A stretch of 64,000 bases of DNA from Streptomyces mexicanus (GTDB lineage: Bacteria > Actinomycetota > Actinomycetes > Streptomycetales > Streptomycetaceae), in assembly GCF_902506575.1 (NCBI RefSeq), contig NZ_LR732544.1, positions 2,824,395 through 2,888,394 of the forward strand, read 5' to 3'. Below are positions 2,293-29,967 of the stretch, in pieces (within the stretch, counting starts at the first letter, position 1; every line of letters starts with the position of its first letter). A program made the translations under genes and the position numbers. The notes beneath the pieces are model-generated. The model saw only the letters and a program-made list of their open reading frames with translations. It did not search any database and was not told where the DNA came from.

Positions 2293-2298
2293 CTGCTG

Positions 2299-2371
2299 TG
2301 GAGCTAAGGAGAATTGAACTCCTGACCTCCTGCATGCCATGCAGGCGCTCTACCAACTGAGCTATAGCCCC
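2299..2371 (-). tRNA. tRNA-Ala (anticodon GGC)
   Basis: Read on the minus strand, the 73-nt gene begins GGGGCTATAGCTCAGTTGGT and ends TTAGCTCC plus discriminator A. The acceptor stem is GGGGCTA/TAGCTCC with one G-U pair. The anticodon loop ATGGCAT sits between CCTGC and GCAGG, giving GGC. The T arm AGGAGTTCAATTCTCCT is canonical. The 3' CCA is not fully encoded. It is identical over 73/73 bases to the copy at 3157-3229. Confidence 0.97.
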
Positions 2372-3150: not shown

Positions 3151-3156
3151 CATCCG

Positions 3157-3229
3157 TGGAGCTAAGGAGAATTGAACTCCTGACCTCCTGCATGCCATGC
3201 AGGCGCTCTACCAACTGAGCTATAGCCCC
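3157..3229 (-). tRNA. tRNA-Ala (anticodon GGC), second identical copy
   Basis: Identical in all 73 positions to the copy at 2299-2371, with the same GGC anticodon, acceptor stem and T arm. The flanks are different on both sides apart from four bases, so the duplicated unit is essentially the tRNA itself. It has its own terminator. Confidence 0.97.
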
Positions 3230-14765: not shown

Positions 14766-15158
14766 CTATGCGAGGACCGGCCACAGGTAGATCATCGCGA
14801 TGATGCAGCCGGTGGCCGAGAACGTCACCCAGTACAGGCTCACCGTGTTGAACGGGACCTTCTCCCAGGGCTTCTGCCGCTGCTCGACGATGTCGGCCAT
14901 CACCCGTTTGCGCACCGGCACCAGCATGATGACGAACATGAGCAGGACGCAGCTGTACAAGTACAGCGTGTGGGGCAGGGAGTAGCCCCTCAGCACGGCC
15001 GTGGGCACGAGGAAGACCAGGCCGACGAACGGCGCGACCGAGACGCGTAGTTTCGCCCCGGGGGTCGGCATGCACCAGCGCATCGCCACCAGGTGGACGA
15101 GGGTGACGACGGCGGCGACGAGGACCCAGCCTGCTGTGGTGACATGGTCGCTCACCAT
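14766..15158 (-). CDS. Small four-helix membrane protein overlapping the ALF-repeat gene
   Basis: A 130-residue protein with four hydrophobic helices: WVLVAAVVTLVHLVAMRW, VAPFVGLVFLVPTAVLRG, TLYLYSCVLLMFVIMLVPV and TVSLYWVTFSATGCIIAMIYLW. A short positively charged loop (RKRVMADIVEQRQK) lies in the middle. Its ATG (15156-15158) overlaps the TGA of the upstream giant ALF-repeat gene (stop at 15152-15154), so the two are translationally coupled. Such coupling suggests a functional partner: an immunity protein, an export helper or a membrane anchor for the secreted protein. No family name is recognised. Confidence 0.7.
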   Translation of the reverse strand: MVSDHVTTAGWVLVAAVVTLVHLVAMRWCMPTPGAKLRVSVAPFVGLVFLVPTAVLRGYSLPHTLYLYSCVLLMFVIMLVPVRKRVMADIVEQRQKPWEKVPFNTVSLYWVTFSATGCIIAMIYLWPVLA

Positions 15159-18100
15159 GGCGTCAGATCATGCCAGGTGTCGCTGATGGCATCACCCACG
15201 GCCTTGCCGCCGGCAACGATGGCGCCGGTGGCCGGCGACAGGGCCGCCGTACCGACGCGCTGGATCTGGGCGCCGACGGACAGGGCGCCGTGTTCGAGCG
15301 GTCCGAGGGCATCGCCGATCACCCCGCCGAACTTGCCCCACGGAAGGCCGGTGGTGAAGACACCGACAGCCACACCGAACGCCGAGGTCAGGCAGTCCGA
15401 GGAGAACGGCCCCTCGGCGAACCCGTAGATGACCGTGCTGGCCACACCGGTGATCAGGGACACCCCACCGAAGAACCCGTACAGGGCCTCACCGGCCGGC
15501 GGCGGGACCAGCAGCGAGAGAGCTGCGGCGTAGCCGGTGTAAGTGGAGATGGTGCCGAGTGTGTCGGCGGCACCCTTCCAGTCATCGGCCGTACCGCCCA
15601 GGAACTTGTACGGTTCCTTCGCCCCGTCGTTGTCGGAGTTGTCCGCCGGGTCGACGCCGTTCTGCTTGGCCTTCGCGGCCGCTTCCGCGGCCGCCTTGGC
15701 CGCCGCGATCTGCTCCTGCCTACGTTTGGTGGCGAGGATCTGCCTCGCCTCGGACGCGGCCTTCGCCGCCGCGGTGGCGTCCTTGCCGGCCTGGAGTGCG
15801 GAGGCGGCGGCCGCGTTGGCGGAAGCCTGGGCGTTGTTGGCGGAGATGGTCGCCGCGGCCGCGGCGGCGGTCGCCTGGTTGGCCGAGTAGTTGGCACGCC
15901 GCGAGGCGCTCCGGGCGGCCAGCGCCGCGCTTTTCGCCTTGTCGGCGGATGCCTGGGCCTCGGCCGCGGACTTCTCCGCGGCGTCCGCGTGGGCCTCCGC
16001 CTGCTGCTTGTACGTCTGCGCTTTGGCGGCGGATTCCGTTGCGGCGGTGGCCCACTTCTGCGCCTCGTCCGACGCCTTGCGCGCCTCCGCCGCGACCTTC
16101 TGGGCGTAGGCAGCGTTCGTCGTCGCGTCCTGCGCCAGCTTCGCGGCGTGCGCGAGCATGGCCTGCATGGCCGCGATGTGGGACGCGGAGTCCGCGTCGA
16201 GTTGCAGCGTCCGCGGATAGACGGTGGTGACGAAGTTGCGGCGCATCCAGCTCGGGCCCTCGAGCGCCACGGTCGCCATCATCTTGGTGTACGGGCCCGC
16301 GGAGTCGACGGCCGAGAAGACGGCCACGTTGTCGTCCTCGGCCTGCGCTGGCGCGTACTTGACGGTGAAGAACTCGTGCACCGCCTTCGCCGAGCCGTCA
16401 TTGAGCGCATCGTTCGCCGCCTGTCTGACCGCCTTGCCGGGATTGCCCGCCAGGATCCTGAAGATCGCCGCGGTCTGGTCCTCCCTGGCCGCGTCGATCG
16501 CACCGGTGGTGAGGAAGGCAGCGGGCGCGGCGTCGTCCGCGGACTCCAGGGCCGCCTGTGCCGCGGCCGCCACATCGGGTGTGGAGACCGTGCTGAGGAA
16601 CAGGACGGTCTCGCGGTCGTCCTGCTTCTGCGCGATAACCCGGTCAGTGTCGATCCAGGTCAGGATGGCCTCGTCACCGGCGGCGAGCGCGAATGCCGCG
16701 GCCTCGCGGGTCCAGGTGCCGTGCGACGACAACAGGGCGAGGCATGCCTTGCGGCCGTGGTCCACGGCGCTCGGGTGGTCGCCGTCCTTGAACGCCTTCT
16801 CGGCCGCCGCGATCAGGTCCAGCGTGGCCGAGTCCGTGGCCTGCTGCTGGGTCAGCTGGTTGCGGGCCGCCTCAGTGTCCTGCCTCTCCAGCTCGGCGAG
16901 CGCGGCGGCGTCGGCCTTGCCCTGCTCGGTGTACTCGTCGAGCCTGGCCTGCTCCGCGTCGCGGGCCTTCTGCTCCACCTCCTGCGCGTCCAGGACGGCC
17001 TTGACCGCGGCATCGGCCGCCGCTTGGGCGTCGTTGGTGTACGCGGTGGACTTGTTGGCGAAGTCCAGGGCCTGGCCCGCGTACTTGACCGCCTCGTCGG
17101 CCGCGGCAGCCGCCTTCTCCGCATGGTCGGCCGCGGAGTTGGCCGCGTCGCGGGCGGCTGCGGCCGCGGTCGCCGCGGTGTCGGCCAGGGACTGTGCGGA
17201 GGAGGCGGCCCTGGTGGCGCGTGCGGCCTGGGCGTCGGCCTCGGCGGCGGCGGCGCGGGCTGCGGCGGCCTCGGAGGTGGCGGCGCCGGCCGCGGAGGCG
17301 GCGGTGGCCGCGGCGTTCGCGGCGGCGGCCGAGTCGCGGGCGGCGGCAGCGGCCGAGTTGCCCGCCGCGACCGACTGGGCGGAGGCGATCTTGGCGGCGT
17401 CGGCGGCCTTGGCGGCGGTACGCGCCCTGGCCGCGGCGGTGCGGGCGGCGATCGCAGCGTCCTTGGCGGCCGCCGTCTTGGACGCGTCCTTGGAGGCGGC
17501 CATGGCCGCCTGGTAGGCGGCGGAGGCGGCGTGCGCGGCCGTGGCGGCGGCGGACGTCGCCGCGTGCGCGGCCCAGGCGGCCTTGCGGGCGGCGGTCTGG
17601 GCGGCGTAGGAGGCGGAGATGGCGATGGACGCGGCGTTGGCCGCACCCTTGGCGGCGCTCGCGGCCTTGCGGGCGGCGGCGGCGGACTTGGCGACGTCCT
17701 CCTTGGCGGCCTGCGCCTCGTCGGCGGCCTCCAGCGCAGCCTTCTTGGCCTCGGCGGCGGCGGTCTTCGCCTTGTCGGACTCCTCCTTCGCCTTCTCCGT
17801 CGACAACTGGGCTCGCTTGGACTGCCGTTCCGTGACGGCGACGAGCTGCTCGATGGAGGCGGCCTCGTCGTCCCGGGCACGGGCGATGTTCTGCCCGATC
17901 TCCAGGAACCAGCGGATGGCGTCGGGGCCGCCGTCGTCCAGGGCGCGCTGTGCGTACGTACTGAGCTCGGGCCCGGCACCGTTGAGGATCTTGAAGACCT
18001 CGGCGGTCTCGTCCTCCAGACGCGCGGAGAACTGGGTGTCGGTGATGAACTTCAGCAGCGCGTCGCCGGAACCGTCGTCAAGGGCGGCCTGCGCGGCGGA

Positions 18101-18580
18101 CTGCACGCTCCTGCCGCCCACCGACTGCAGCGTGAGGGCGAGGACGCGCATGTCCTCGGCCTGCGCCGTCTTGTACCCGCCGGCGAGGAAGGCCGAGATC
18201 TCCGCGTCCCCCGCCTCCAGGACGCGGGAGATCTCGGCGATCGTGCCCTTGCCGGCCAGGGAGAGCGCCTTGAAGACGGCGGCGCGGTTGTCCTCGGCGA
18301 TGGCGGCCGGCAGTGCCGTGGTGAGGAACGCCTCGACGTCCGCGTCGGTGCCGACGAGCGCGGCGGCCGCAGCGGCCTTGGTCGCCTTGCCACCACCCTG
18401 CCAGGCGGCGACGGCCTTGGCCCGCGGCGTGTCGGGAAGCGAGGGGATGGTGGGGGTGTCGCCGGTGCCGGTCGTGGCGGCGAAGGCCTGGGACGTCCTG
18501 CTCAGTGGCAGTGCCGTGGCTGCCGCGGTGGCGGCTGCCACGGTGATAAGGCGCCGTCTGCTCCAGAAAGTTGTCTGCAT
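15152..18580 (-). CDS. Tat-type secreted Ala-rich ALF-repeat protein, copy 1
   Basis: A 1142-residue protein. The N-terminus MQTTFWSRRRLITVAAATAAATALPL is a twin-arginine-like signal with a long hydrophobic core. Then come ALF-type repeats of ~40 residues (about 50-245; motifs such as AALDDGSGDALLKFI and AQRALDDGGPDAIRWFL), a very long Ala-rich coiled coil (about 250-560), a second ALF block (about 640-810), another coiled-coil stretch (about 830-985), and a C-terminal hydrophobic domain (about 1010-1142) containing SLLVPPPAGEALYGFF. Paralogue of 23460-26906. ALF repeats are known from actinobacterial secreted proteins and polymorphic toxins, but no toxin domain is recognised here. It is followed without a gap by a small membrane-protein gene. 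The function is unknown. Confidence 0.8.
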   Translation of the reverse strand: MQTTFWSRRRLITVAAATAAATALPLSRTSQAFAATTGTGDTPTIPSLPDTPRAKAVAAWQGGGKATKAAAAAALVGTDADVEAFLTTALPAAIAEDNRAAVFKALSLAGKGTIAEISRVLEAGDAEISAFLAGGYKTAQAEDMRVLALTLQSVGGRSVQSAAQAALDDGSGDALLKFITDTQFSARLEDETAEVFKILNGAGPELSTYAQRALDDGGPDAIRWFLEIGQNIARARDDEAASIEQLVAVTERQSKRAQLSTEKAKEESDKAKTAAAEAKKAALEAADEAQAAKEDVAKSAAAARKAASAAKGAANAASIAISASYAAQTAARKAAWAAHAATSAAATAAHAASAAYQAAMAASKDASKTAAAKDAAIAARTAAARARTAAKAADAAKIASAQSVAAGNSAAAAARDSAAAANAAATAASAAGAATSEAAAARAAAAEADAQAARATRAASSAQSLADTAATAAAAARDAANSAADHAEKAAAAADEAVKYAGQALDFANKSTAYTNDAQAAADAAVKAVLDAQEVEQKARDAEQARLDEYTEQGKADAAALAELERQDTEAARNQLTQQQATDSATLDLIAAAEKAFKDGDHPSAVDHGRKACLALLSSHGTWTREAAAFALAAGDEAILTWIDTDRVIAQKQDDRETVLFLSTVSTPDVAAAAQAALESADDAAPAAFLTTGAIDAAREDQTAAIFRILAGNPGKAVRQAANDALNDGSAKAVHEFFTVKYAPAQAEDDNVAVFSAVDSAGPYTKMMATVALEGPSWMRRNFVTTVYPRTLQLDADSASHIAAMQAMLAHAAKLAQDATTNAAYAQKVAAEARKASDEAQKWATAATESAAKAQTYKQQAEAHADAAEKSAAEAQASADKAKSAALAARSASRRANYSANQATAAAAAATISANNAQASANAAAASALQAGKDATAAAKAASEARQILATKRRQEQIAAAKAAAEAAAKAKQNGVDPADNSDNDGAKEPYKFLGGTADDWKGAADTLGTISTYTGYAAALSLLVPPPAGEALYGFFGGVSLITGVASTVIYGFAEGPFSSDCLTSAFGVAVGVFTTGLPWGKFGGVIGDALGPLEHGALSVGAQIQRVGTAALSPATGAIVAGGKAVGDAISDTWHDLTPW

Positions 18581-19347
18581 GTGTATGTCGTCCTCGAGGT
18601 GCTGACTGACAGAGCGGAGTGGCCGGTGGCACGCGACACCGGCGGGCGCGCTTGTGGTGGGAGCCGGTGGAGCTTGAGGCGGCGGGCGCTCTGAGCGCCT
18701 GGCGCGGCGGCCATCGGCTGCGATGACCGTGCTGCGTGCGTGCGGGCCGCCCCGTTTCGGCGCACGGTCACAATTCCCCCGTCACCTCTGTTGCGTGCCA
18801 ATCGAAAAGGGATCCTCACACACTTTTTCGGTGCACGTAAAGGAGGGCTGCAAAACCACGGGCGACCCTCCCCGCCTGACACAGTCATCCACAAAAGGGA
18901 GAGAAATCAACGAATTTTTTACTCATCCTTGACGGTCCTTCGACAATTCGGCCGTCGCGGCGAAACCGGCGCAGTCGAGGGCGAACTGCCTTCATCTTTG
19001 GCCAAGTTGGCCATCGACGAAAACCTTCACATATGTGGCGACGATCTGTCAGTCATGTGATGTACGCCACCCTGCACTCGCGCCAAGTAGGTGTTTTGCC
19101 ACCCTTCGCCCTGTGGACATGGATCAAGAATTCCAGCTTGGATGAACGAAGCTGCGGGCGAGTTTCGCACTTGCGATGCGGAGAGTCCTCTCACACCGAT
19201 GGCTCATTTCGGGGGGCGGTTCCATGGCCATGCACATTTCTGAGTGTGCTCATTTCGCGCCGGCTTCTGCCGACCCGGCCCGTCGCAGCCGACGCTCGCA
19301 ACCGTACGCGCTCTGACGTACCACCAGCATCGACCCCAAGGACTTCA
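18581..19347. promoter_or_regulatory. 767-bp divergent intergenic region, unusually AT-rich for this genome
   Basis: This lies between the leftward ALF-repeat gene and the rightward small secreted protein. The centre (about 18770-18960) contains A/T runs such as CACTTTTTCGG, CAAAAGGG and GAATTTTTTACTC, clearly richer in AT than the flanking genes. It must hold promoters for both transcription units. I see no tRNA, no open frame with convincing codon use and no clear operator. The compositional change may mark foreign DNA. Confidence 0.55.
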
Positions 19348-19890
19348 ATGAAGGCGCGTGGCGCAATCGTGGCAAGGCCGAGAAACAAGAGATTCGTCGG
19401 CACCGTGCTGGCCGCAGCAGTGGCCGGCGCCCTGACCTGGCTCGCCGTCCCGGCCGGCTCCTCCGGCGCCCAGAGCGCCGACAACCGGGCGACGGCACCC
19501 GTCGCGGGCGAGGCTCCCGGCTACGCCGTGGAGGACTTCAACTACCCGCAGGCCGACAAGATCCTCGCGGAGAAGAACATCGTCCTCAAGCGCGGCGACG
19601 GCCACATCACCCTCGCCGACTGCGTCAGCGGCACCGGACAGCTCGAGGTCTGGGCCCGCAGCAAGGACAAGATCTGCTTCCAGGTCACCGGCAACTCCGG
19701 CTGGCTGACCCTGGAGATCCCCTCCGTCTACGGCATCAAGGGCAACGACTACGCCACCCAGGTGGACATGACCACCGGCACCGAGGAAAAGTCCTTCGAC
19801 ATCGACAAGAACACCTGGACCGCGGTCGGCGAGAGCGCCGACGAACAGGGCCGCGAATTCATGCTCGTGGAAATCCGAACCACCAAGTAG
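19348..19890 (+). CDS. Small secreted protein of the duplicated module, copy 1
   Basis: 180 residues from the ATG at 19348, preceded by AAGGA. An earlier in-frame ATG at 19033 gives only shadow-like sequence. It has a basic start (RPRNKRFVGT), a hydrophobic signal core (LAAAVAGALTWLAVPAGSS) and a mature domain of ~130 residues rich in strands. Cys pairs at CVSG and ICFQ could form a disulfide. The mature part is essentially identical to the product of 27137-27679 (see repeat entry). The next gene, 91 bases downstream, encodes a trypsin-fold FG-GAP protein, as in the other half of the island. I recall similar proteins in many Streptomyces genomes, without a known function. Confidence 0.75.
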   Translation: MKARGAIVARPRNKRFVGTVLAAAVAGALTWLAVPAGSSGAQSADNRATAPVAGEAPGYAVEDFNYPQADKILAEKNIVLKRGDGHITLADCVSGTGQLEVWARSKDKICFQVTGNSGWLTLEIPSVYGIKGNDYATQVDMTTGTEEKSFDIDKNTWTAVGESADEQGREFMLVEIRTTK

Positions 19891-19896
19891 CCCTGG
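19485..19896 (+). repeat. 412-bp near-identical direct repeat, copy 1
   Basis: This segment covers the mature part of the small secreted protein plus the first 6 bases after the stop, and matches 27274-27685 with three substitutions visible by eye (all silent), in the same orientation 7.8 kb apart. Outside it the two loci diverge quickly, which points to recent duplication or gene conversion. Confidence 0.85.
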
Positions 19897-19981
19897 TGCG
19901 ATTGCGCGTCTCTTGGGTGGATCCACTCCGAGAGTCACTTCATGCCACGCACCGGATACGCCTTCCTGGAAAGAGCCACAC

Positions 19982-21847
19982 ATGTCTCACAGACGCTTTT
20001 CCATGTCAAGGGCATGGGCAGTCGGCGTCGCAGCCGCAATCGCGGCACCGGCCCTGCTCACCGCCGCGCCGGCCGACGCAGTGGTGGGCGCGGAAGTCAC
20101 TGACAACGCCTACGCCTTCACCGCTCGCATCGACATCGGCGACGGCGAGCGCGCCTGCTCCGGCGCCCTGGTCGACCCTTCATGGGTCGTCACCGCGGGA
20201 TCGTGCTTCGTGGACGACCCGGCCTCAGGTGCCGTCCCCGCCGCCGGCAAACCCGCCAAGACCGCCAAGGTGATCGTCGGCCGCCCCGATCTGACCACCA
20301 CGGCCGGCATGGCGACCGAGATCACCGAGCTCGTCCCCTACCCAGGGCGCGACCTGGTCATGGGGCGCCTGGCACAGCCAGCCACAGGGATCACCCCGGT
20401 CGCGCTCTCCACCACCCCGCCGATCGCGGGGGAGACCCTCGAAGCCGTGGGATTCGGCCGCACCAGGACCGAGTGGTCGCCGCTCAGGCAGCACACCGGG
20501 GCCTTCACCACCGACACCGTGGAGGACACCGGCCTGTCCCTCACGGGGCAGAACGGCGACGCCATCTGCCCTGGTGACGCCGGCGGCCCCTTGGTGCGCG
20601 AGAAGAACGGAACGATCGAACTCGTCGCCGTCCACAGCCGCTCCTGGCAGGGAGGCTGCTGGGGCGTGGACGCCGACGAAACGCGCACCGGAGCGGTCGA
20701 CACCCGCGTGGACGATCTGAACGCGTGGATCCAGCAGGTCCGCGGTCTGCCCCAGCAGGCGCAGGTGACCGCAGGCGACTTTAACGGTGACGGCAAGGCC
20801 GACGTCGCGGCGCTGTACGACGACGGGAAGGACGCCGCAGGCCGCGGTCTGGTCAGTCTGTGGGTGTTCGACAGCGACGGCACGGCGCTGCGTGCGCCGC
20901 GCGTGACGTGGAACAGCGACACCAGCTGGACCTGGAGCAACACCAAGCTCACGTCGGGCGACTACAACGGAGACGGGAAGGCCGACGTCGGCGTTCTCTA
21001 CAACTACGGACAGAACGCCGACGGCGTCAACCGGACCAAGCTGTGGATCTTCACCAGCACCGGGGACGGTTTTCGGGCACCGACGATCCTGTGGGACAGC
21101 GGCAGCACGAGCTGGAACTGGAATTCCAGCAAGCTCACCTCGGGCGACTACAACGGTGACGGCAAGGCCGACATCGGCGTTCTCTACAACTACGGGCGTA
21201 CCGCCGACGGCCGCAACCACACCGGCCTGTGGGTGTTCACCAGCGTCGGCAACGGCTTCCAGGCACCGGCCAAGGTCTGGGACAGCGGCACCGGCAGCTG
21301 GAACTGGAACGCCAGCAAACTGACGTCGGGCGACTTCAACGGCGACGGCAGGACGGACGTCGCCGTGCTGTACGACTACGGACAGGCCGCCGACGGCCGC
21401 AACCAGACCGGTCTGTGGTTCGTCGGCGGTGCCGACGGCCTCGGTTCCCCGAAGAAGGTCTGGACGAGCGACACCAGTTGGAACTGGAATTCCAGCAAGC
21501 TCACCTCGGGCGACTACGACGGTGACGGCAAGGCCGACATCGGCGTTCTGTACAACTACGGTCAGGACAGCGAGGGCCGCAACCACACCGGTCTGTGGAC
21601 CATGGCGGGCACCGACACCGGCGTCGCGCCGGCGAAGAAGGTCTGGGACAGCACCACGAGCTGGAACTGGAACGCCAGCCAGCCCGTGTCCGGTGATTTC
21701 AACGGTGACGGCAAGAGCGACCTCGCCGTCTTCTACGACTACGGACACAGCGCCGACGGCCGTACCCGTCACGGCCTGTGGAACTTCACCAGCACCGGTG
21801 ACGGCATGACCGGCCCGCACCTCGACTGGGACAGCGCCCTGCGGTGA
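19982..21847 (+). CDS. Secreted trypsin-fold pseudoprotease with six FG-GAP/VCBS-type repeats
   Basis: A 621-residue protein from the ATG at 19982 (MSHRRFSMSR..., preceded by GGAAAGAG). It has a signal peptide ending near APADA and an S1-type domain (about 36-235) with the Cys pair of CSGALVDPSWVVTAGSC. The catalytic His is Ser74 (TAGSC instead of TAAHC), and the nucleophile Ser is Ala200 (CPGDAGGP instead of CxGDSGGP). It should therefore be catalytically dead. The second half is six repeats with calcium-type loops such as DYNGDGKADVGVLYNYG, each followed by an aromatic W-N-W-N segment, likely a beta-propeller. The small secreted protein gene precedes it; galE is convergent downstream. Likely a surface or matrix binding protein. 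Confidence 0.85.
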   Translation: MSHRRFSMSRAWAVGVAAAIAAPALLTAAPADAVVGAEVTDNAYAFTARIDIGDGERACSGALVDPSWVVTAGSCFVDDPASGAVPAAGKPAKTAKVIVGRPDLTTTAGMATEITELVPYPGRDLVMGRLAQPATGITPVALSTTPPIAGETLEAVGFGRTRTEWSPLRQHTGAFTTDTVEDTGLSLTGQNGDAICPGDAGGPLVREKNGTIELVAVHSRSWQGGCWGVDADETRTGAVDTRVDDLNAWIQQVRGLPQQAQVTAGDFNGDGKADVAALYDDGKDAAGRGLVSLWVFDSDGTALRAPRVTWNSDTSWTWSNTKLTSGDYNGDGKADVGVLYNYGQNADGVNRTKLWIFTSTGDGFRAPTILWDSGSTSWNWNSSKLTSGDYNGDGKADIGVLYNYGRTADGRNHTGLWVFTSVGNGFQAPAKVWDSGTGSWNWNASKLTSGDFNGDGRTDVAVLYDYGQAADGRNQTGLWFVGGADGLGSPKKVWTSDTSWNWNSSKLTSGDYDGDGKADIGVLYNYGQDSEGRNHTGLWTMAGTDTGVAPAKKVWDSTTSWNWNASQPVSGDFNGDGKSDLAVFYDYGHSADGRTRHGLWNFTSTGDGMTGPHLDWDSALR

Positions 21848-22080
21848 CGAGTGGCCCGAACGTCTCTGTCTGACCTCTCCCCCTGTCCGCTCCTCCGTAC
21901 GGCGCGGGCAGGGGTCGCCGTCCGGCCGGTACAGGTGGGCCGCCCGGCGGCAGCGGGCCGCGGCCGCCGGACCATGGTCCTCCTGCCGCGGCGCGCTCAG
22001 CGGTACCGCGGTCCGACACCGATCGCCCCCGGCTCAGCCGTGCCGGGGGCACCGGCCCGGCCGGAGCGACAAGACGCGGC

Positions 22081-23052
22081 TCAGCCGTGCCGGTGGCGCC
22101 ACCCCAGCCAGGCCGACTCGATCATGTCGTCCAGGTCGTGGCGGGCGCTCCAGCCCAGTTCCGCGTGGATGCGGTCGGCGGAGGCGACGACCCGGGCGGG
22201 GTCGCCGGGGCGGCGTGCGGTGACTTCGGGGGCGAGGTCTTCGCGGCCGGTCACCTTGAGGATGCGGTCGACCATCTGTCGTACGGAGCTTCCCTCGCCC
22301 CGGCCGATGTTGAGGGTCAGGGACGTGCCCGCGGGGGCCTCGGCCAGGCGCCGCGCCGCCGCGAGGTGGGCGGAGGCGATGTCCGCGACGTGGATGTAGT
22401 CGCGCACGCAGGTGCCGTCCGGTGTGGCGTAGTCGTCGCCGAAGATGCGCGGCGCCTCGCCGGCCTCCAGCCGCTCGAACACCATGGGGATGAGGTTGAA
22501 AGCCCCCGAGTCGGACAGTTCCGGCGTGGCGGCCCCGGCGACGTTGAAGTAGCGCAGGGCGGCGGCCTTCAGGCCGTGGGCGCGCGCCGCGGCGGCGATC
22601 AACCACTCGCCGACCAGCTTGGTCTCGCCGTAGGGGCTCATGGGCACGCAGGGGGTGTCCTCGGTGACGAGGTCCACGTCGGGCATGCCGTAGACGGCCG
22701 CGGAGGAGGAGAAGACGAGCCGGTCGACGCCGACGGCGGTCATGGCCTCGAGGAGGGTCTGCAGGCCGGTGACGTTCTCCCGGTAGTAGTACAGGGGGCG
22801 TTCGACCGACTCCCCCACCTGCTTCTTGGCCGCGATGTGCACCACACCGGCGATGTCGTGGTCACGGAAGGTGCGCTCGAGCAGCTCCTGGTCCAGCACG
22901 CTGCCCACGACCAGCGGCACGTCGGCGGGCACGCGGTCGGCCGCACCGGTGGACAGGTCGTCGTAGACGACCACGTGTTCGCCGCCCTCGGTCATGGCGC
23001 GCACCACATGGGCGCCGATGTACCCGGCTCCACCCGTGACCAACCAGTTCAT
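22081..23052 (-). CDS. galE: UDP-glucose 4-epimerase-like SDR enzyme
   Basis: 323 residues from the ATG at 23050-23052, preceded by GGAGGAGG. The NAD-binding motif TGGAGYIGAHV is at residues 6-15, and the catalytic pair Y-x3-K (SPYGETKLV) lies near residue 145, with SSSAAVYG before it. Residues LRYFNVAGA and GTCVRDYIHVADIA are typical GalE blocks. It would interconvert UDP-glucose and UDP-galactose (or the N-acetyl forms) for wall or extracellular polymers. It is alone on the minus strand between the two halves of the accessory island. Substrate range cannot be settled from sequence. By position it could be the S. coelicolor SCO2588-like gene. Confidence 0.88.
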   Translation of the reverse strand: MNWLVTGGAGYIGAHVVRAMTEGGEHVVVYDDLSTGAADRVPADVPLVVGSVLDQELLERTFRDHDIAGVVHIAAKKQVGESVERPLYYYRENVTGLQTLLEAMTAVGVDRLVFSSSAAVYGMPDVDLVTEDTPCVPMSPYGETKLVGEWLIAAAARAHGLKAAALRYFNVAGAATPELSDSGAFNLIPMVFERLEAGEAPRIFGDDYATPDGTCVRDYIHVADIASAHLAAARRLAEAPAGTSLTLNIGRGEGSSVRQMVDRILKVTGREDLAPEVTARRPGDPARVVASADRIHAELGWSARHDLDDMIESAWLGWRHRHG

Positions 23053-23459
23053 CGTTGTGCCTCCTCCGTCCGTACAGCTGGGACCACCTTCGCCCATGAC
23101 CTGCACGAAATCGAATCCGGCAGATCAGGGCATCTCGGGTGATTCCGGCGATGACGAAGTCGAGCGCGGCGACCGGGCCGCCCGACGCCGGAGGGGGAGC
23201 GGAGCGTCTGTGTTCGTGACGTGATCACATCATCGAAACACGCACACGCCCCGTCCGCAACCGATCCCACCCGGAGTATCCAGGCGAATACGGCCATACG
23301 ACCGGTGTGGGTTTTCTCATGTGCCTCGCGTGCTCCTGACGGGTGGTCACTTGTGGCGCGTCGCACATAGGTTCACCCCTCGGGCTCACGACACGCCCGG
23401 CAGTTCCGTCGGCGGACACCACGCGCCGACGCCGGACACACAACGAGGGGGGACATTCC
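23053..23459. promoter_or_regulatory. 407-bp divergent region between galE and the second ALF-repeat gene
   Basis: It must hold promoters for both directions. A small palindrome GTGATCAC lies at 23221-23228, preceded by GTGAC. There is an AT-richer patch around 23220-23300. Just before the rightward gene sits a strong purine ribosome site (GAGGGGGGA, about 23445-23453). No other gene is seen. Confidence 0.5.
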
Positions 23460-26400
23460 TTGGACACCACCTACTGGAGCAGACGCCGCGTCCTCACCGC
23501 CATCGGGGCGGCCACCGCGGCGACCGCGATCCCGCTCGCGGCACCCTCCCGGGCACTGGCCGCCACCACGTCCACGACCGGAGCGGATCTGCCGAGGCTC
23601 CCGGAACTTCCCGACACCGCCCGGGCCCGGGCGGTCACCGCGTGGAAGATCGGCGGGCGCACGGTCAAGAACGTGGCCGCCCAGGCGCTCACCGGCACCG
23701 GCGCCGATGTCGACGGCTTCCTGTCGCAGGGGCTGGCGCAGGCCACCGCCGAGGACAACCGCCTCGCCCTCCTCAAGGCCCTGCCCGCCAGCGGCAAGGG
23801 CACGGCCCGTGACGCCTCCGCCGCGCTCGACGGCGGTGACGACGCCATCGCCGCCTTCCTGGCCGGCGGATACAAGACCGCCGAACTGGAGGATCTCCGC
23901 GTCACCACCCTGTCCATCATGAACGCCGGTGGTACGGCGATCCGGCGGGAGGCGCAGAAAGCCCTCACCGACGGCACCAGCGACGCCCTGTCGCTGTTCC
24001 TGCTGGACACCCAGATCACCGCCCGCCAGGAGGACGAGCGGGCCGAGGTGTTCCGTATCCTCTCCACCGCCTCTCCGGAGGTGCAGAAGTACGCCGAGCG
24101 CGCCCTGGACGACGGCTCCCCGTCGGCGATCAACTGGTTCCTGACCACCGGCCAGTACATCGCGCGGGCCCGGGACCAGGAGAGCGCCACCATCGATCAG
24201 CTGGTGGCGATCGTGGAACGCGAGGGCAAGCGCGCCCAGCTCACCTCCGACCGCGCCGTCGCCGCCTCGGACAAGGCGCAGCAAGCCGCCGAGAAGGCGA
24301 AGGAGGCTGCCGAGAAGGCCGCCGCCGAGGCCGACGCGGCCCGCGAGGACGTCGCCAAGTCCGGTGCCGCCGCCCGCAAGGCGGCCTCCGCGGCCCAGGG
24401 CGCCGCCTCCGCCGCCCGCACCGCCGTCCAGGCCTCCTCCGCCGCGCACAACGCCGCCCGCCGCGCGGCGCTGTCCGCCACCGCCGCCGCCCGGGCCGCG
24501 GCGCCCGCCGGCCGAGCCGCGTCCGCGGCCTACTCGGCGGCCATCGCGGCGGCCCACGCCGCCTCCAAGGCCAGCGCCGCCCGGGCCGCGGCACAGGGCG
24601 CCCGCAACGCCGCCGCCAAGGCCCGCACCGCGGCGGCCGCCGCCGACGCGGCCGCGACCGCCTCCAGTCAGGCGGCGGCAGCCGGGTCCGCCGCGGCCGG
24701 GGCGGCGCGCAACGCGGCCTCCGCGGCCAACTCCGCCGCAGTTGCCGCGCAGGCAGCCGGTGCCGCCCAGTCGGAGGCGGCCGCCGCCAAGGCCGCCGCC
24801 GCGGAGGCGGACGCCCAGGCGGCCCGGGCCACCAGGGCCGCGAACACCGCCCAGTCCCTGGCCAACACCGCGGCGCAGGCGGCACGCACCGCCCGTGACG
24901 CGGCCAACTCCGCCGCCACCCACGCCGACAACGCGGCGAAGGCGGCCGACGAGGCCGCCGACGCGGCCGGGCAGGCCGCCGACTACGCCACCAAGGCCAC
25001 GGCGTGGGCCGCCGAGTCGGTGAAGGCCGCCGAAGCAGCGGTGAAGGCGGTCCAGGACGCCCAGGACGTGGAGCAGGCGGCGCGCGACTCCGAGGCCGAG
25101 AAACTGGCGGAGGAGACCGAGCAGTCGCTCGCCGAGGCCCGGGAGCTGGCGCAGGCGGAGGCCGAGGACCGGGAGGCGGCCCGTAACGCCGCCACCCAGG
25201 CGGACGCCCTGGACGCCGCGACCAAGGACCTGATCGCCAAGGCCGAGTCCGCCTACTCCTCCGGCGACACGGCCCAGGCCGTCGCTCTGGGCCGCCGGGC
25301 GGCGATGAACCTGATCTCCACGACGATCGGCACCTGGAGCCGGAGCGCCGCCGAGTACGCCCTGGCCGGAGCCGACGAGGACGTGCTGGCCTGGGTCTCC
25401 ACCGACCGCCGGATCGCGCAGACCCAGGACGACCGCGAGACGGTCCTCGCCCTGGCGAAGGTCTCCACCGAAGCCGTGGCCAACGCCGCTCAGACGGCGC
25501 TGTCGGCCGAGGACTCCAAGGCCGTGGGCGACTTCCTGACCACCGGGATCCTGGAAGCCGCCGCGGCGGACAACCGGATCGCCATCCTGCGCATCCTCGC
25601 CGACAACCCCGGCAACGCCGTCAAGGCGGCGGCGCAGGCCGCCCTGGACGACGGCTCGGCCAAGGCCCTGCACGACTTCTTCCTGGGCTACGCCGACAAG
25701 GTCGTCGAGGACGACCAGGTCGCCGTCCTCTCCATCCTCGACACCGCCGGCCCGTACACCAAGGCGGCCGCCCAGGTCGCGCTGGAGGGCCCGTCGTGGA
25801 TGCGGCGTGACTTCGTCACCACCGTGCACCACCGCACCGCGCAGCTCGACTCCGACTGGAGTGCCCACGTCGCCGCCGTCCGGGCCTCCATCGCCCACGC
25901 GGCGAAGATCGCCCAGGAGGCGCAGAAGGACGCCTACGAAGCGTCCAAAGCCGCGGCCGATGCCCGCAAGGCGGCCGACGAGGCGGCACAGTGGGCGACC
26001 AAGGCGCAGGCCTCCGCCGACAAGGCCGCCGACTACGCCCAGCAGGCCGACGCGAACGCGGACGCCGCCGAACGCTCCGCACAGGACGCGCAGGCCTCGG
26101 CGGACAAGGCGAAGGCCGCGGCCGCCTCCGCGCGCAGCGCCGCACGGCGGGCGAACTACTCCGCCAACCAGGCCGTGGCCTCCGCCGCTGCCGCCGTGCA
26201 GTCCGCCAACCAGGCCCAGGCGTCGGCCAACGCCGCACGCCAGTCCGCCTACGAGGCCGGAAAGGACGCGGCGGCCGCCGCACAGGCCGCCTCCGAGGCC
26301 CGCACGATCGCCGCCCAGAAGCGTCAGCAGGAACTGGCTGCCGCCGCGCAGGCGGCGGCGCAGGCGGCGAAGCAGAACCAGCAGAACGGCGTCGACCCTG

Positions 26401-26906
26401 CCGACACCAGCGACAACGACAAGGTCGACAACCCCGAGGGCTGGGGCAGCAAGGACGACTGGCGCAACGTCGCGCAGGCCCTCAACGCGATCAGCGCCGT
26501 CTCCGGGACCGTCGCCGCGTTCAGCCTGCTCATTCCCCCGCCCGCCGGGGAGGCCATCGCGGGTGTGGCGGGCACCATCTCCTGGGTCACGGGCATCGGT
26601 TCGGCCGTCATCACGGGCTTCACCGACGGATGGACCTCCGACGCGTTCTTCGGTTCCGTCGCCGGTCTGGCGGTCGGCGCGCTCACCGGAGGCTTCACGC
26701 TGGGCAAGATCAAGGTGCCCGGCCTGTCCCATGTGATCGAGTGGGGCGCCGAAGGCCTGAAGAGCGGCACGGTGCTCGCCACCCGGGTCGGACACGAACT
26801 GGTCGGTCCCGCGGTCGGTTTCGCAACCACGTCGTGGAACAAGGTCGGCGATGTGGCCTCCGACATCGGGGGGGCCATCTCCGACGGATGGAACTCCATC
26901 TTCTAG
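23460..26906 (+). CDS. Tat-type secreted Ala-rich ALF-repeat protein, copy 2
   Basis: 1148 residues from the TTG at 23460, with GAGGGGGGA six bases upstream. The longer ATG reading from 23343 has no partner in the paralogue. The N-terminus (L)DTTYWSRRRVLTAIGAATAATAIPL aligns with copy 1. The architecture is the same: two ALF-repeat blocks (about 45-240 and 640-815) separated and followed by Ala-rich coiled coils, then a hydrophobic C-terminal domain with SLLIPPPAGEAIAGVAG. ALF stretches include AERALDDGSPSAINWFL and AQAALDDGSAKALHDFF. Ala makes up over a third of the coil. Unlike copy 1, it is not followed by a small membrane protein but by a small secreted protein and a pseudoprotease on the same strand. 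Function unknown. Confidence 0.8.
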   Translation: MDTTYWSRRRVLTAIGAATAATAIPLAAPSRALAATTSTTGADLPRLPELPDTARARAVTAWKIGGRTVKNVAAQALTGTGADVDGFLSQGLAQATAEDNRLALLKALPASGKGTARDASAALDGGDDAIAAFLAGGYKTAELEDLRVTTLSIMNAGGTAIRREAQKALTDGTSDALSLFLLDTQITARQEDERAEVFRILSTASPEVQKYAERALDDGSPSAINWFLTTGQYIARARDQESATIDQLVAIVEREGKRAQLTSDRAVAASDKAQQAAEKAKEAAEKAAAEADAAREDVAKSGAAARKAASAAQGAASAARTAVQASSAAHNAARRAALSATAAARAAAPAGRAASAAYSAAIAAAHAASKASAARAAAQGARNAAAKARTAAAAADAAATASSQAAAAGSAAAGAARNAASAANSAAVAAQAAGAAQSEAAAAKAAAAEADAQAARATRAANTAQSLANTAAQAARTARDAANSAATHADNAAKAADEAADAAGQAADYATKATAWAAESVKAAEAAVKAVQDAQDVEQAARDSEAEKLAEETEQSLAEARELAQAEAEDREAARNAATQADALDAATKDLIAKAESAYSSGDTAQAVALGRRAAMNLISTTIGTWSRSAAEYALAGADEDVLAWVSTDRRIAQTQDDRETVLALAKVSTEAVANAAQTALSAEDSKAVGDFLTTGILEAAAADNRIAILRILADNPGNAVKAAAQAALDDGSAKALHDFFLGYADKVVEDDQVAVLSILDTAGPYTKAAAQVALEGPSWMRRDFVTTVHHRTAQLDSDWSAHVAAVRASIAHAAKIAQEAQKDAYEASKAAADARKAADEAAQWATKAQASADKAADYAQQADANADAAERSAQDAQASADKAKAAAASARSAARRANYSANQAVASAAAAVQSANQAQASANAARQSAYEAGKDAAAAAQAASEARTIAAQKRQQELAAAAQAAAQAAKQNQQNGVDPADTSDNDKVDNPEGWGSKDDWRNVAQALNAISAVSGTVAAFSLLIPPPAGEAIAGVAGTISWVTGIGSAVITGFTDGWTSDAFFGSVAGLAVGALTGGFTLGKIKVPGLSHVIEWGAEGLKSGTVLATRVGHELVGPAVGFATTSWNKVGDVASDIGGAISDGWNSIF

Positions 26907-26922
26907 ACGCATGCGGACCGGG

Positions 26923-26955
26923 CCGGAACCTCACCGCACGGCAGTGGGGTTCCGG
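26923..26955 (+). terminator. Hairpin after the second ALF-repeat gene
   Basis: Arms 26923-26934 (CCGGAACCTCAC) and 26944-26955 (GTGGGGTTCCGG) pair over 12 bases with one G-T, around a 9-base loop. It lies 17 bases after the stop. There is no U tract. It is plausibly the end of that transcript, which would separate it from the downstream secreted protein. Confidence 0.6.
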
Positions 26956-27136
26956 CTTCGGCAAGCATCACGGGCGCGGGCGCGGTCCTGTCGCCCGGTG
27001 GCGCAGGTCGTGCCGTACGGCCGCGCCGTACCCGTCGCCCCGTTGTCCGCCCGGCGCCACGCTGTCCGCCCGGCGGCGAACAGCCCCGTTCCGGGCGTAC
27101 TCCCCTATTTCACCGTAACCGACTCATAGGACATCC

Positions 27137-27679
27137 ATGACATCGCTCAGCGCTCTCTCGGCCATGCCGAAGCGCAAAAGAATCGTCGGCACGCTGCTGG
27201 CCGCGGCCACGGCCGGCGCCCTGACCTGGCTCGCCGTCCCGGCCGGCTCCTCCCCCGCCCCGACCACCGACAGCCGGGCGACGGCACCCGTCGCGGGCGA
27301 GGCTCCCGGCTACGCCGTAGAGGACTTCAACTACCCGCAGGCCGACAAGATCCTCGCGGAGAAGAACATCGTCCTCAAGCGCGGCGACGGCCACATCACC
27401 CTCGCCGACTGCGTCAGCGGCACCGGACAGCTCGAGGTCTGGGCCCGCAGCAAGGACAAGATCTGCTTCCAGGTCACCGGCAACTCCGGCTGGCTCACCC
27501 TGGAGATCCCCTCCGTCTACGGCATCAAGGGCAACGACTACGCCACCCAGGTCGACATGACCACCGGCACCGAGGAAAAGTCCTTCGACATCGACAAGAA
27601 CACCTGGACCGCGGTCGGCGAGAGCGCCGACGAACAGGGCCGCGAATTCATGCTCGTGGAAATCCGAACCACCAAGTAG
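27137..27679 (+). CDS. Small secreted protein of the duplicated module, copy 2
   Basis: 180 residues from the ATG at 27137, preceded by AGGA. Its signal region (PKRKRIVGTLLAAATAGALTWLAV) is similar to but not the same as copy 1; from RATAPVAGEAPGYAVEDFNY onward the two proteins are identical to the end (EIRTTK). Cys at ADCVSG and KICFQ are conserved in both. It lies after the second ALF-repeat gene and 84 bases before the second pseudoprotease. Keeping an identical mature domain while the signal and neighbours diverge suggests that the mature sequence is under selection or was converted recently. Function unknown. Confidence 0.75.
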   Translation: MTSLSALSAMPKRKRIVGTLLAAATAGALTWLAVPAGSSPAPTTDSRATAPVAGEAPGYAVEDFNYPQADKILAEKNIVLKRGDGHITLADCVSGTGQLEVWARSKDKICFQVTGNSGWLTLEIPSVYGIKGNDYATQVDMTTGTEEKSFDIDKNTWTAVGESADEQGREFMLVEIRTTK

Positions 27680-27685
27680 CCCTGG
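27274..27685 (+). repeat. 412-bp near-identical direct repeat, copy 2
   Basis: Partner of 19485-19896: same length, same strand, three silent differences seen by eye. It could support recombination that would delete or duplicate galE and the second ALF-repeat gene between the two copies. Confidence 0.85.
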
Positions 27686-27762
27686 GCGCACGCCCCGTCG
27701 GCTTGTCCCACGCTGCCCGAGGCCGCTCGGCCCGGCAGACCTCGAGTCCAAGGAATCAGATC

Positions 27763-29967
27763 ATGCGACACACGAGACATCTGCGTCTCGCCGCGCTCAC
27801 AGCCGCCCTGGTCGTCGGCCCGGTGGCGCTCTGCGCCTCGCCCGCGTCCGCGGTGACCGGCACGCCGGTCACCGACAACTCCTTCAGCTACACCGCGCAG
27901 GTCATCGTCGGCGATCACGACCGCGGCTGCTCCGGCGTGCTGGTCGCCCCCGAGTGGCTGCTGACCGCGGCGAGCTGCTTCGCCGACGACCCGGCGACGA
28001 GCCTGTCGGTGCCCGCGGGCAAGCCCGCCAAGCACACCACCGCCACCATCGGCCGCTCCGACCTGAGCGGCTCCGACGGAGCGGTGCGCGACGTGGTCCA
28101 GCTCGTGCCCCGCACCGACCGCGACGTCGTCCTGGCCCGCCTCGACCGCCCGGTCACCAACGTGGCCCCCGTCGCACTGGCCACCAGCGCGCCGGCCGCC
28201 GGCGAGGAGCTGAAGTTCGCCGGGTACGGGCGCAACAAGACCGAGTGGGCGCCGCTGAAGCTGCACACCGGCGCGCTGACCGTGGACGCCGCCGGCGCCA
28301 CCACGGCCGACGTCACCGGCAAGGACGGCGCGGCCGCCTGCATGGGCGACACCGGCGGCCCGGTGGTCCGTACGGTCAACGGCACCGCGCAGCTGGTGGC
28401 GCTCACCAGTCGTTCGTACCAGGGCGGCTGCTTCGGCATCGACGCCGCGGAGAGCCGCACGGGTGGCGTCGCCGCCCGTGTCGACGACCTGAGCTCCTGG
28501 GTGAAGTCCACCGTCGGCGCCCTGCCCGTCACCGACTTCAACTGCGACGGCGTCGAGGACGTCGCCATCTCCGACCCGAAGGCGGCCGTCGGCGGCGACG
28601 ACGGAGCCGGTGTCGTCCGGATCGTGTACGGCGGCGGAAAGGGCACCGCCGAGATCAACCAGGACCTCGACTGGGTGCCGGGCGGCGCGGAGGCCGGCGA
28701 CTGGTTCGGTGAGGCCACGGACACCGTCGACTACAACCAGGACGGCTGCACCGACCTGGTCGTCGGCACGCCCTCCGAGGACCTGGGCACCGCGACCGAC
28801 GCCGGCATGGTCGACATCCTCTACGGTGCGCCGGGCGGCATCGGCACCGGGACGCTCAAGGACACCCACTTCGAGCAGGGCTACGGCAACGGCGCCCTCA
28901 AGGGGTCCGCCCCCGAGTCCGGCGACCGCACCGGTGCGGCCGTGGCCGCGGGCACCACCGCCGACGGCGAGCCGTTCGTGGTGATCGGTATGCCGGGCGA
29001 GTCCATCGGTTCGGTCGCCAAGGCGGGCATGGCCGTCTACGTGCACGGCGACACCAACATCGGCATCAGCCAGGACAGCACGAACGTGCCGGGCGCGGTG
29101 GAGGCCAACGACGGTTTCGGTGCCGTCGTCGCGGCCGACGCCAACCACATCGCGATCGGCGCTCCGGACGAGACCATCGGCACCGACGCGGGCGCCGGCA
29201 ACCTGGCGGTCTTCAGCCACAAGCTCAACTCCGAGGGCCGGCCGACCCCGCTGTTCGGTCTCGACCAGGACCTGGACACCGTCTCCGGGGGCGCCGAGGC
29301 GGGCGACCAGTTCGGCAAGTCCCTGGCCCTGGTCCCCTACCGCCCGTCCGGAGCGACGGCCGCGACCGACTCCATCCTCGCGGTGGGCTCTCCCGGTGAG
29401 GACCTGGACATCGACGGTGTGAGCAAGGCCGACGCCGGTGAGGTCATCACGTTCGACGTCACCGCCGCGGGCTCGTACAAGGAGATGTACGTCTACCACT
29501 CCGGCACCGCCGACGACGCCGTCCCGGGAACCGCGGAGGCCGGCGACCGCTTCGGCCAGTCCGTGGCCGCGGTGAACACCGCGCCGCGCGAGGTGAGCAC
29601 CACGGCGACGATGAAGCTGGCCGTCGGCCTGACGGACGAAGCGATCGGCACCACGGCGAAGGCCGGCGCGATCACCACGTTCTCGCTCCTCAGCTCCCGT
29701 GACACGAACAACCGCTGGATCGAGGCCGGCACCTCCGGTATCCCGGGCCCCGCGGGTGCCAACCAGCACCTCGGCCAGAGCATCCACTACACCGGCACCA
29801 AGCTGTACCTGGGCATGCCGTACGGGCCGGGCAGCTACGGCACGGTGTACGCCCTGCCGATGTCGAACGTGACCGCGGGCGGTTCCAACGCCGCGATCAC
29901 CACGTACACGCCGGGCCAGGGCGGTCTGCCGGCCGCCGGTGGCCGCTTCGGTTACGTGGTCCGCTAG
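27763..29967 (+). CDS. Secreted trypsin-fold pseudoprotease with integrin-like FG-GAP repeats
   Basis: 734 residues from the ATG at 27763 (MRHTRHLRL..., preceded by AAGGAA). A signal peptide ends near ASPASA. The S1-type domain (about 30-240) lacks the catalytic His (Ser71 in LTAASC) and the nucleophile Ser (Thr197 in CMGDTGGP); the Asp region (RTDRDVVLARL) is present. The C-terminal ~490 residues hold FG-GAP repeats of the integrin alpha type: D-x-N-x-D-G Ca loops (TDFNCDGVEDVAI, VDYNQDGCTDLVVG) followed by blocks such as GGAEAGDWFG and GGAEAGDQFG, forming a predicted beta-propeller. It is related to 19982-21847 in the first domain but has a different repeat family. Last gene of the island, with a strong terminator after it. 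Confidence 0.85.
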   Translation: MRHTRHLRLAALTAALVVGPVALCASPASAVTGTPVTDNSFSYTAQVIVGDHDRGCSGVLVAPEWLLTAASCFADDPATSLSVPAGKPAKHTTATIGRSDLSGSDGAVRDVVQLVPRTDRDVVLARLDRPVTNVAPVALATSAPAAGEELKFAGYGRNKTEWAPLKLHTGALTVDAAGATTADVTGKDGAAACMGDTGGPVVRTVNGTAQLVALTSRSYQGGCFGIDAAESRTGGVAARVDDLSSWVKSTVGALPVTDFNCDGVEDVAISDPKAAVGGDDGAGVVRIVYGGGKGTAEINQDLDWVPGGAEAGDWFGEATDTVDYNQDGCTDLVVGTPSEDLGTATDAGMVDILYGAPGGIGTGTLKDTHFEQGYGNGALKGSAPESGDRTGAAVAAGTTADGEPFVVIGMPGESIGSVAKAGMAVYVHGDTNIGISQDSTNVPGAVEANDGFGAVVAADANHIAIGAPDETIGTDAGAGNLAVFSHKLNSEGRPTPLFGLDQDLDTVSGGAEAGDQFGKSLALVPYRPSGATAATDSILAVGSPGEDLDIDGVSKADAGEVITFDVTAAGSYKEMYVYHSGTADDAVPGTAEAGDRFGQSVAAVNTAPREVSTTATMKLAVGLTDEAIGTTAKAGAITTFSLLSSRDTNNRWIEAGTSGIPGPAGANQHLGQSIHYTGTKLYLGMPYGPGSYGTVYALPMSNVTAGGSNAAITTYTPGQGGLPAAGGRFGYVVR

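What the first reader, a model, noticed from the sequence alone, without database searches (positions are those of the whole stretch)
15152..29967. Two-copy three-gene module: ALF-repeat giant, small secreted protein, pseudoprotease
The island between proB and the Stealth operon has two related sets. Each has a ~1145-residue Tat-type ALF-repeat protein, a 180-residue secreted protein and a trypsin-fold FG-GAP protein. In the left set the ALF gene points outward; in the right set all three are co-directional. The repeated co-occurrence suggests a real secreted system, possibly a surface or extracellular scaffold. I know of no name for it.
Basis: partly seen in the sequence, partly recalled or inferred. 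Interest (0 to 1): 0.85.

Follow-up and report, generated by a model that had tools for sequence, protein, structure and literature searches.

The report
Streptomyces umbrella toxin gene cluster
The island encodes two copies of a known kind of bacterial weapon, the umbrella toxin particle with which soil bacteria stop each other's growth; what looks new is that its adaptor gene stays nearly identical between copies while the genes beside it diverge.

Summary
In detail: two related three-gene sets lie between proB and a Stealth gene. The trio has a name. It is an umbrella (Umb) toxin locus: ALF giant = UmbC, small secreted protein = UmbB adaptor, degenerate trypsin plus FG-GAP protein = UmbA lectin. 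Set A UmbC, set B UmbB and both UmbA proteins match the corresponding chains of the solved Umb1 particle, PDB 8w20. Of 33 Streptomyces loci fetched with the small protein, 33 carry the pseudotrypsin gene and 30 an ALF gene in the flanks. So 'real secreted system' is right and 'scaffold' is wrong.

Three points go beyond what I read. (1) Mature UmbB of both sets, and of a third copy 2.7 Mb away, differs at only 2-5 of 375 bases, while the UmbA genes beside it differ at 27-36% of bases; 6 of 23 other hand-picked genomes show such near-identical UmbB copies. (2) A four-helix membrane protein overlaps the end of umbC-A; its family sits just behind 34 of 77 UmbC genes with the same toxin family, so it is the likely immunity protein. 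(3) Set B lacks this gene; its relative L026 has one.

The parts
14766..15158 (-). Candidate immunity gene UmbD-A: 130 aa, four predicted membrane helices, start overlaps the umbC-A stop by 7 bases
   Evidence: no Pfam or NCBIfam match
15152..18580 (-). UmbC-A: Tat-like signal (SRRRL, by eye), 8 ALF stretches, long Ala-rich coils, hydrophobic C-terminal toxin-position domain (last ~170 aa)
19348..19890 (+). UmbB-A adaptor (longest ORF starts at 19033; start inferred by homology)
   Evidence: identical in its last 134 residues to UmbB-B, which matches PDB 8w20_B
19516..19890 (+). Homogenised mature part of umbB-A: 3 of 375 bases differ from umbB-B
19913..21847 (+). UmbA-A: degenerate trypsin domain plus FG-GAP repeats (likely start near 19982, inferred)
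22081..23106 (-). UDP-glucose 4-epimerase (galE-like) between the sets; link to the toxin not shown
   Evidence: TIGR01179 above cut-off
23460..26906 (+). UmbC-B (longest ORF starts at 23343): Tat-like signal, 8 ALF stretches in two groups of four, coils, hydrophobic C-terminal domain of the same family as UmbC-A
26907..27136 (.). Gap between umbC-B and umbB-B with no membrane-protein ORF; in the relative L026 this gap is 711 bases and holds a UmbD-family gene
27137..27679 (+). UmbB-B adaptor, AVED motif
27305..27679 (+). Homogenised mature part of umbB-B
27703..29967 (+). UmbA-B: degenerate trypsin domain plus a different FG-GAP propeller region (likely start near 27763, inferred)

Best explanation
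The island holds two umbrella-toxin (umb) loci in tandem. UmbC (ALF giant) is exported, its eight ALF repeats forming a ring from which a coiled-coil stalk carries the C-terminal toxin. UmbB is the adaptor: its core binds ALF repeats and its extended N-terminus (AVED) plugs into the dead active-site cleft of the UmbA trypsin fold. UmbA proteins form the spokes; their FG-GAP propellers bind surface glycans of target bacteria. The UmbC C-terminus, a hydrophobic helical domain, most likely damages the target's membrane, as proposed for the published four-helix (4TM) toxins; the small membrane protein UmbD-A most likely protects the producer. Because mature UmbB-A and UmbB-B are identical in sequence, either UmbA can most likely be mounted on either UmbC. 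Shown here: homology of all parts, co-occurrence, loss of catalytic residues, near-identity of UmbB. From the two papers: particle architecture, lectin targeting, lack of protease activity. Inferred: toxin mechanism, immunity role, interchangeability.
For: PDB sequence search: P0001 (UmbC-A) to 8w20_A E=4.1e-84 over residues 47-974; P0004 (UmbB-B) to 8w20_B E=1.6e-18; P0005 (UmbA-A) to 8w20_C 2.7e-79 and 9oee_A 1.9e-96; P0006 (UmbA-B) to 8w20_C 3.4e-66. P0002 and P0003 were not searched there, but are homologous to P0001 and P0004. 8 ALF stretches per UmbC. AVE of the AVED motif invariant in 15 of 15 aligned UmbB. Catalytic His replaced in 36 of 36 UmbA, Ser in 29 of 36. Locus co-occurrence 30 of 33 for UmbC and 33 of 33 for UmbA. 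Published description: PMC11062931 sections 4, 6, 7, 8, 10; PMC13274773 sections 8, 9, 13.
Against: Nothing contradicts the identification. Weak points: the C-terminal domain has no Pfam hit outside ALF and no NCBIfam match, its model is poor (pLDDT 57.8) with no PDB fold match at E<=0.001, and hydropathy shows only 1-3 clear membrane segments, so '4TM' is a resemblance, not a test against the published family. UmbC-B has no neighbouring immunity gene. Expression, secretion and activity in this strain are unknown.
Confidence: 0.94

Rival explanations
1. Extracellular or surface scaffold without toxin function.
For: Giant coiled-coil repeat protein with secreted partners; no enzymatic domain recognised in the C-terminus.
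Against: All three subunit types match the antibacterial Umb1 particle; C-terminal domain is replaced by unrelated ones in 6 of 29 complete UmbC, as expected of polymorphic toxins; a likely immunity gene follows.
Confidence: 0.03
2. The UmbB homogenisation is a neutral by-product: UmbB is simply the best-conserved gene, so it alone keeps enough identity for RecA-mediated gene conversion; no common-adaptor function is selected.
For: Unconverted UmbB pairs are generally more alike than their UmbA trypsin neighbours. UmbB copies diverge in many genomes (49 of 62 pairs lie at 57-90%).
Against: Neighbouring UmbA trypsin parts at 81-87% identity in G264, G038 (one pair), G014 and G201 are not converted; homogenised copies recur in 7 of 24 genomes and in rearranged loci with several UmbA per UmbC. 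None of this measures selection.
Confidence: 0.45
3. The identical UmbB copies are an assembly or polishing artefact.
For: Near-identical 375-base stretches can be merged by assemblers; G000, G014 and G201 are draft assemblies.
Against: Copies in G000 lie on one 7.16-Mb contig and still differ at 2-5 positions and fully in flanks and signal peptides; the same pattern occurs within single large contigs in G038, G264, G268 and G316.
Confidence: 0.05
4. The small membrane protein is not an immunity protein but, for example, an export helper for UmbC.
For: Absent behind 43 of 77 UmbC genes with the same toxin family, including UmbC-B and UmbC-C here. Its divergence tracks the UmbC ring as well as the toxin (Mantel rho 0.38 and 0.37; partial 0.21 and 0.30; n=13).
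Against: 0 of 6 UmbC with other toxins have it (Fisher p=0.020); it follows an RHS-type giant protein with a weak match to the toxin family, without ALF repeats (L136); it occurs with no Umb gene nearby in 6 of 6 regions looked at and in 38 genomes without UmbB.
Confidence: 0.2

Closest known systems
Umbrella toxin particle Umb1-Umb3 of Streptomyces coelicolor (PMC11062931; PDB 8w20, 8w22, 9oee)
   Same: Same three protein families, eight ALF repeats, AVED motif, degenerate trypsin fold, neighbouring genes, Tat-like UmbC signal.
   Different: Two loci in tandem here. Mature UmbB-A and UmbB-B are identical in protein sequence, whereas UmbB1-3 of S. coelicolor average 39% identity (paper). Set A has a membrane-protein gene at the immunity position; the paper reports no immunity candidate for UmbC2, the 4TM toxin.
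Umbrella toxins across Streptomycetaceae (PMC13274773)
   Same: Several UmbA and UmbC per genome: here at least 3 UmbC, 4 UmbB, 3 UmbA.
   Different: The passages I searched do not discuss homogenisation of UmbB.
RHS-type polymorphic toxins
   Same: In one genome (G284, L136) an RHS-repeat protein ends in a domain weakly matching the same toxin family (domain E 1.2e-6) and is followed by two UmbD-family genes.
   Different: No ALF repeats, no UmbA or UmbB in the fetched 12 kb; a different delivery vehicle.

Membership tests
[quoted passage not shown]
   8 stretches in each. By position in the genome scan: 4+4 for UmbC-B, 3+4 found for UmbC-A.
Umbrella toxin locus | UmbC alignable to the solved UmbC1 through ring and stalk | tested here: met
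   P0001 residues 47-974 to 8w20_A, E=4.1e-84; P0002 not searched.
Umbrella toxin locus | UmbC Tat signal | tested here: met
   Twin-arginine motif SRRRL/SRRRV plus hydrophobic stretch, by eye; no signal predictor was available.
Umbrella toxin locus | UmbB adaptor homologous to UmbB1 with AVED motif | tested here: met
   8w20_B E=1.6e-18; AVED in both copies.
Umbrella toxin locus | UmbA trypsin fold without a complete catalytic triad | tested here: met
   8w20_C matches; His and Ser replaced in both.
Umbrella toxin locus | UmbA C-terminal lectin domain | tested here: inconclusive
   FG-GAP repeats found; fold not modelled, sugar binding not testable.
[quoted passage not shown]
   Neighbours in both sets; 30 of 33 related loci.
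Umbrella toxin locus | UmbC C-terminal toxin domain with antibacterial activity | not testable with these tools
   Domain present and replaced by unrelated domains in 6 of 29 complete UmbC; activity needs the bench.
4TM tox family | Four transmembrane helices / match to the published family | tested here: inconclusive
   Helical model of low confidence; 1-3 hydropathic segments; the published family definition is in a supplement I could not read.
Umbrella toxin locus | Immunity gene downstream of umbC | tested here: inconclusive
   A candidate follows umbC-A but not umbC-B; protection not testable.
Umbrella toxin locus | Five-spoked secreted particle | not testable with these tools
   Needs purification and electron microscopy; the ALF residues that decide spoke number were not analysed.

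The most novel reading that the evidence does not exclude
UmbB is under concerted evolution as a common connector: gene conversion keeps one adaptor sequence across scattered umb loci so that every lectin in the cell can be mounted on every toxin. On this reading a strain gains a new spoke or a new toxin by acquiring one locus whose umbB is then overwritten, and whether a genome runs such a common-adaptor or a cognate-adaptor arsenal (as S. coelicolor, UmbB1-3 at 39%) can be read from sequence.
Probability: 0.45. Interest if true: 0.62.

Novelty: new member of a known kind. Interest (0 to 1): 0.42.

Why it matters
The identification turns an unnamed module into a known interbacterial weapon and removes it from the list of mystery systems. 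The side results are testable: homogenised versus diverged UmbB predicts whether lectins are shared between particles, which is the basis of the proposed bet-hedging by lectin and toxin mixing. A membrane-protein family at the immunity position, also present in genomes without UmbB, would say which producers and bystanders resist the commonest toxin class found here.

Tried and rejected
Scaffold reading: rejected once the PDB chains matched. Fold of the toxin domain and of UmbD: modelled, no PDB match at E<=0.001, so no mechanism comes from structure. Specific coevolution of UmbD with the toxin: not shown; correlation with the UmbC ring is as strong. G064 (L134) as a non-umbrella carrier of the toxin: dropped, because its 2060-aa ORF has an UmbC-like coil and a masked stretch. 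G225: only UmbD lies in the fetched stretch, so its 2208-aa ORF was not typed. G159 and G242 rejected as homogenised cases: in G159 the UmbA is also near-identical (99.2%), in G242 UmbB is 95.7% and the contrast is not significant, p=0.24. First paper search with four terms returned unrelated gene-conversion papers; the two-term search 'umbrella toxin' + 'gene conversion' gave 0 papers.

Full report
1. What is there. Two related gene sets lie between proB (13378-14550, -; amino-acid kinase plus PUA) and a Stealth-domain protein (ORF 30061-33501, -). Set A: a 130-aa membrane protein (14766-15158, -), an ALF-repeat giant (15152-18580, -), then on the + strand a small secreted protein (about 19348-19890) and a trypsin/FG-GAP protein (19913-21847). 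A galE-like epimerase follows (22081-23106, -). Set B on the + strand: ALF giant (about 23460-26906), small protein (27137-27679), trypsin/FG-GAP protein (27703-29967). Sources.

2. What it is. All three families match the solved Umb1 umbrella particle of Streptomyces coelicolor by sequence: P0001 to 8w20_A (E 4.1e-84), P0004 to 8w20_B (1.6e-18), P0005 and P0006 to 8w20_C (2.7e-79, 3.4e-66); P0005 also to 9oee_A (1.9e-96). P0002 and P0003 were not searched in the PDB set. The features given in PMC11062931 are present: eight ALF stretches, Tat-like signal, AVED motif in UmbB, UmbA without a complete catalytic triad. In 36 UmbA (34 from the 33 loci, 2 from the window) the catalytic His is replaced in 36 and the Ser in 29; the Asp motif was found in 36. 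Of PMC11062931 I read the outline and abstract, sections 4, 6, 7, 8, 10, 35 and 42, and passages. Of PMC13274773 I read the outline and abstract, sections 8, 9 and 13, and passages. PMC3482391 was seen only in a search listing.

3. One scan of 84,980 species genomes with the small protein gave 33 loci, all in Streptomyces. 33 of 33 carry the trypsin-domain gene and 30 of 33 an ALF gene within flanks of at most 10 kb, shorter at contig ends. The misses are L024 and L038 (full flanks) and L033 (small gene 35 bases from a contig end). A profile of the small protein matched 135 of 392 sampled Streptomyces genomes.

4. UmbB is homogenised. Over the mature part (375 bases to the stop), umbB-A and umbB-B differ at 3 bases, umbB-A and a third copy (L065, an umbB-umbA pair 2.7 Mb away, with no UmbC found in 19 kb) at 2, and umbB-B and the third at 5. 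Outside the gene the similarity collapses. The trypsin parts of the adjacent umbA genes are 64-73% identical and the two umbC genes 70%. At fourfold positions umbB-A and -B agree at 42 of 44, their umbA neighbours at 35 of 68 (p=2e-7). The fourth copy, on contig C144, is not homogenised (82%). Set B's umbA is 91% identical to that of L026 from another species, yet its umbB is 93.5% identical to L026's and 99.2% to umbB-A: copies within the genome are closer than orthologues, the signature of concerted evolution.

5. It recurs. Of 55 genomes with two or more UmbB matches among 392 I examined 24, picked by hand and favouring high-scoring copies, so the fraction is not a frequency. Seven, own included, have a pair at 98% or more: G000, G014, G038, G201, G264, G268, G316. 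G264 differs at 1 of 378 bases with flanks near 50%; G268 and G316 are identical with sharp edges but have no UmbA beside both copies; the contrast with UmbA is weak in G014 (p=0.048) and moderate in G201 (p=0.001). The other seventeen give no such pair: 49 of 62 pairs lie between 57 and 90%; G242 is at 95.7% (p=0.24) and G159 at 97.3% with equally similar UmbA. Homogenised clusters are rearranged: G038 has one UmbC, three UmbB and four UmbA in 19 kb; G264 has two UmbC, one with the four-helix-type toxin domain and one without.

6. Toxin and immunity. A profile seeded with the window's C-terminal domains recognises 23 of 29 UmbC with complete 3' ends (33 collected, 4 truncated ones dropped), and 6 carry other domains. 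Behind 13 of the 23 starts an ORF of about 121-160 aa with 2-4 hydropathic segments, from 18 bases before to 111 bases after the umbC stop; behind 0 of the 6 (Fisher p=0.020). Behind one of those six (L036) is a Barstar-domain gene, as expected at an immunity position. In 392 genomes the UmbD profile matches 82 and the toxin profile 98. I entered 101 of the printed toxin matches (the weak tail was mostly left out; by eye none of the omitted ORFs is 1000-1400 aa). Of 77 with ORFs of 1000-1400 aa, 34 have a UmbD match within 700 bases downstream on the same strand, about 0.001 expected by chance; over all 44 adjacent cases the gap is 18-304 bases. 58 of 102 UmbD matches are not adjacent to such a toxin match; 38 of the 82 UmbD genomes have no UmbB match, and 6 of 6 non-adjacent cases looked at have no Umb gene in 10-12 kb. 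The profiles were built partly from loci that recur in the sample (at least 8 duplicates), so the count is not fully independent.

7. Against my immunity reading. 43 of 77 such UmbC, including UmbC-B and UmbC-C here, lack the gene. UmbD divergence correlates with the ring as well as with the toxin. Five loci (L041, L045, L047, L049 and the own C144 contig) have no UmbD; in L041 the gene behind umbC is a 645-aa secreted protein with an endonuclease domain (PF13930), L047 has a 661-aa relative of it, and in L045 and C144 the start of a similar ORF is seen.

8. How the island arose. The slot is shared: proB lies beside the umb genes in 6 of 33 loci and both proB and Stealth (over 80% identity) in 4 (L024, L025, L026, L029). 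L024 has only umbB-umbA. L025 has UmbD-A, UmbC-A, UmbB, a B-type UmbA and galE. L026 has UmbC-B, UmbD, UmbB and the B-type UmbA. The window reads as an L025-type and an L026-type arrangement joined in tandem; the UmbD gene present in L026 is missing from set B, where similarity stops within about 30 bases of the umbC stop. A second UmbD-family gene lies alone on contig C12 (67% identical).

9. Verdict. The concerted evolution of the adaptor and the membrane-protein family at the immunity position are the parts I did not find described: 'umbrella toxin' with 'gene conversion' gave 0 papers in the open library, and PMC11062931 reports no immunity candidate for UmbC2. Its supplement may hold one.

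Noticed in passing
L041:4113-6047(-), L047:3813-5798(-): A 645-661-aa secreted protein directly behind umbC in these loci; the L041 protein has a DNA/RNA non-specific endonuclease domain (PF13930). Possibly a second effector of the umb locus.
   Followed up: partly
L136:2359-10810(-) (genome G284): RHS-repeat giant with a weak match to the umbrella toxin domain at its C-terminus and two UmbD-family genes behind it: toxin and immunity cassette apparently shared between delivery systems.
   Followed up: partly
G000:C12:15986-16354(+): Second UmbD-family gene in the own genome, 67% identical to the window's, next to a transporter-like 11-helix ORF and with no umb gene in the 10 kb fetched.
   Followed up: partly
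window 22081-23106(-): galE-like epimerase between the two umb sets and a Stealth gene beside them. PMC13274773 describes wall-glycopolymer genes next to umbA in S. griseus; a link between self-glycan and toxin is conceivable, untested.
   Followed up: no
L145:7191-7721(-) and 8299-8829(+) (genome G268): Two identical umbB genes back to back, one beside an umbC-umbD pair, the other beside two umbA genes.
   Followed up: partly
window 2298-2371(-) and 3156-3229(-): Two tRNA-Ala(ggc) genes about 0.8 kb apart.
   Followed up: no
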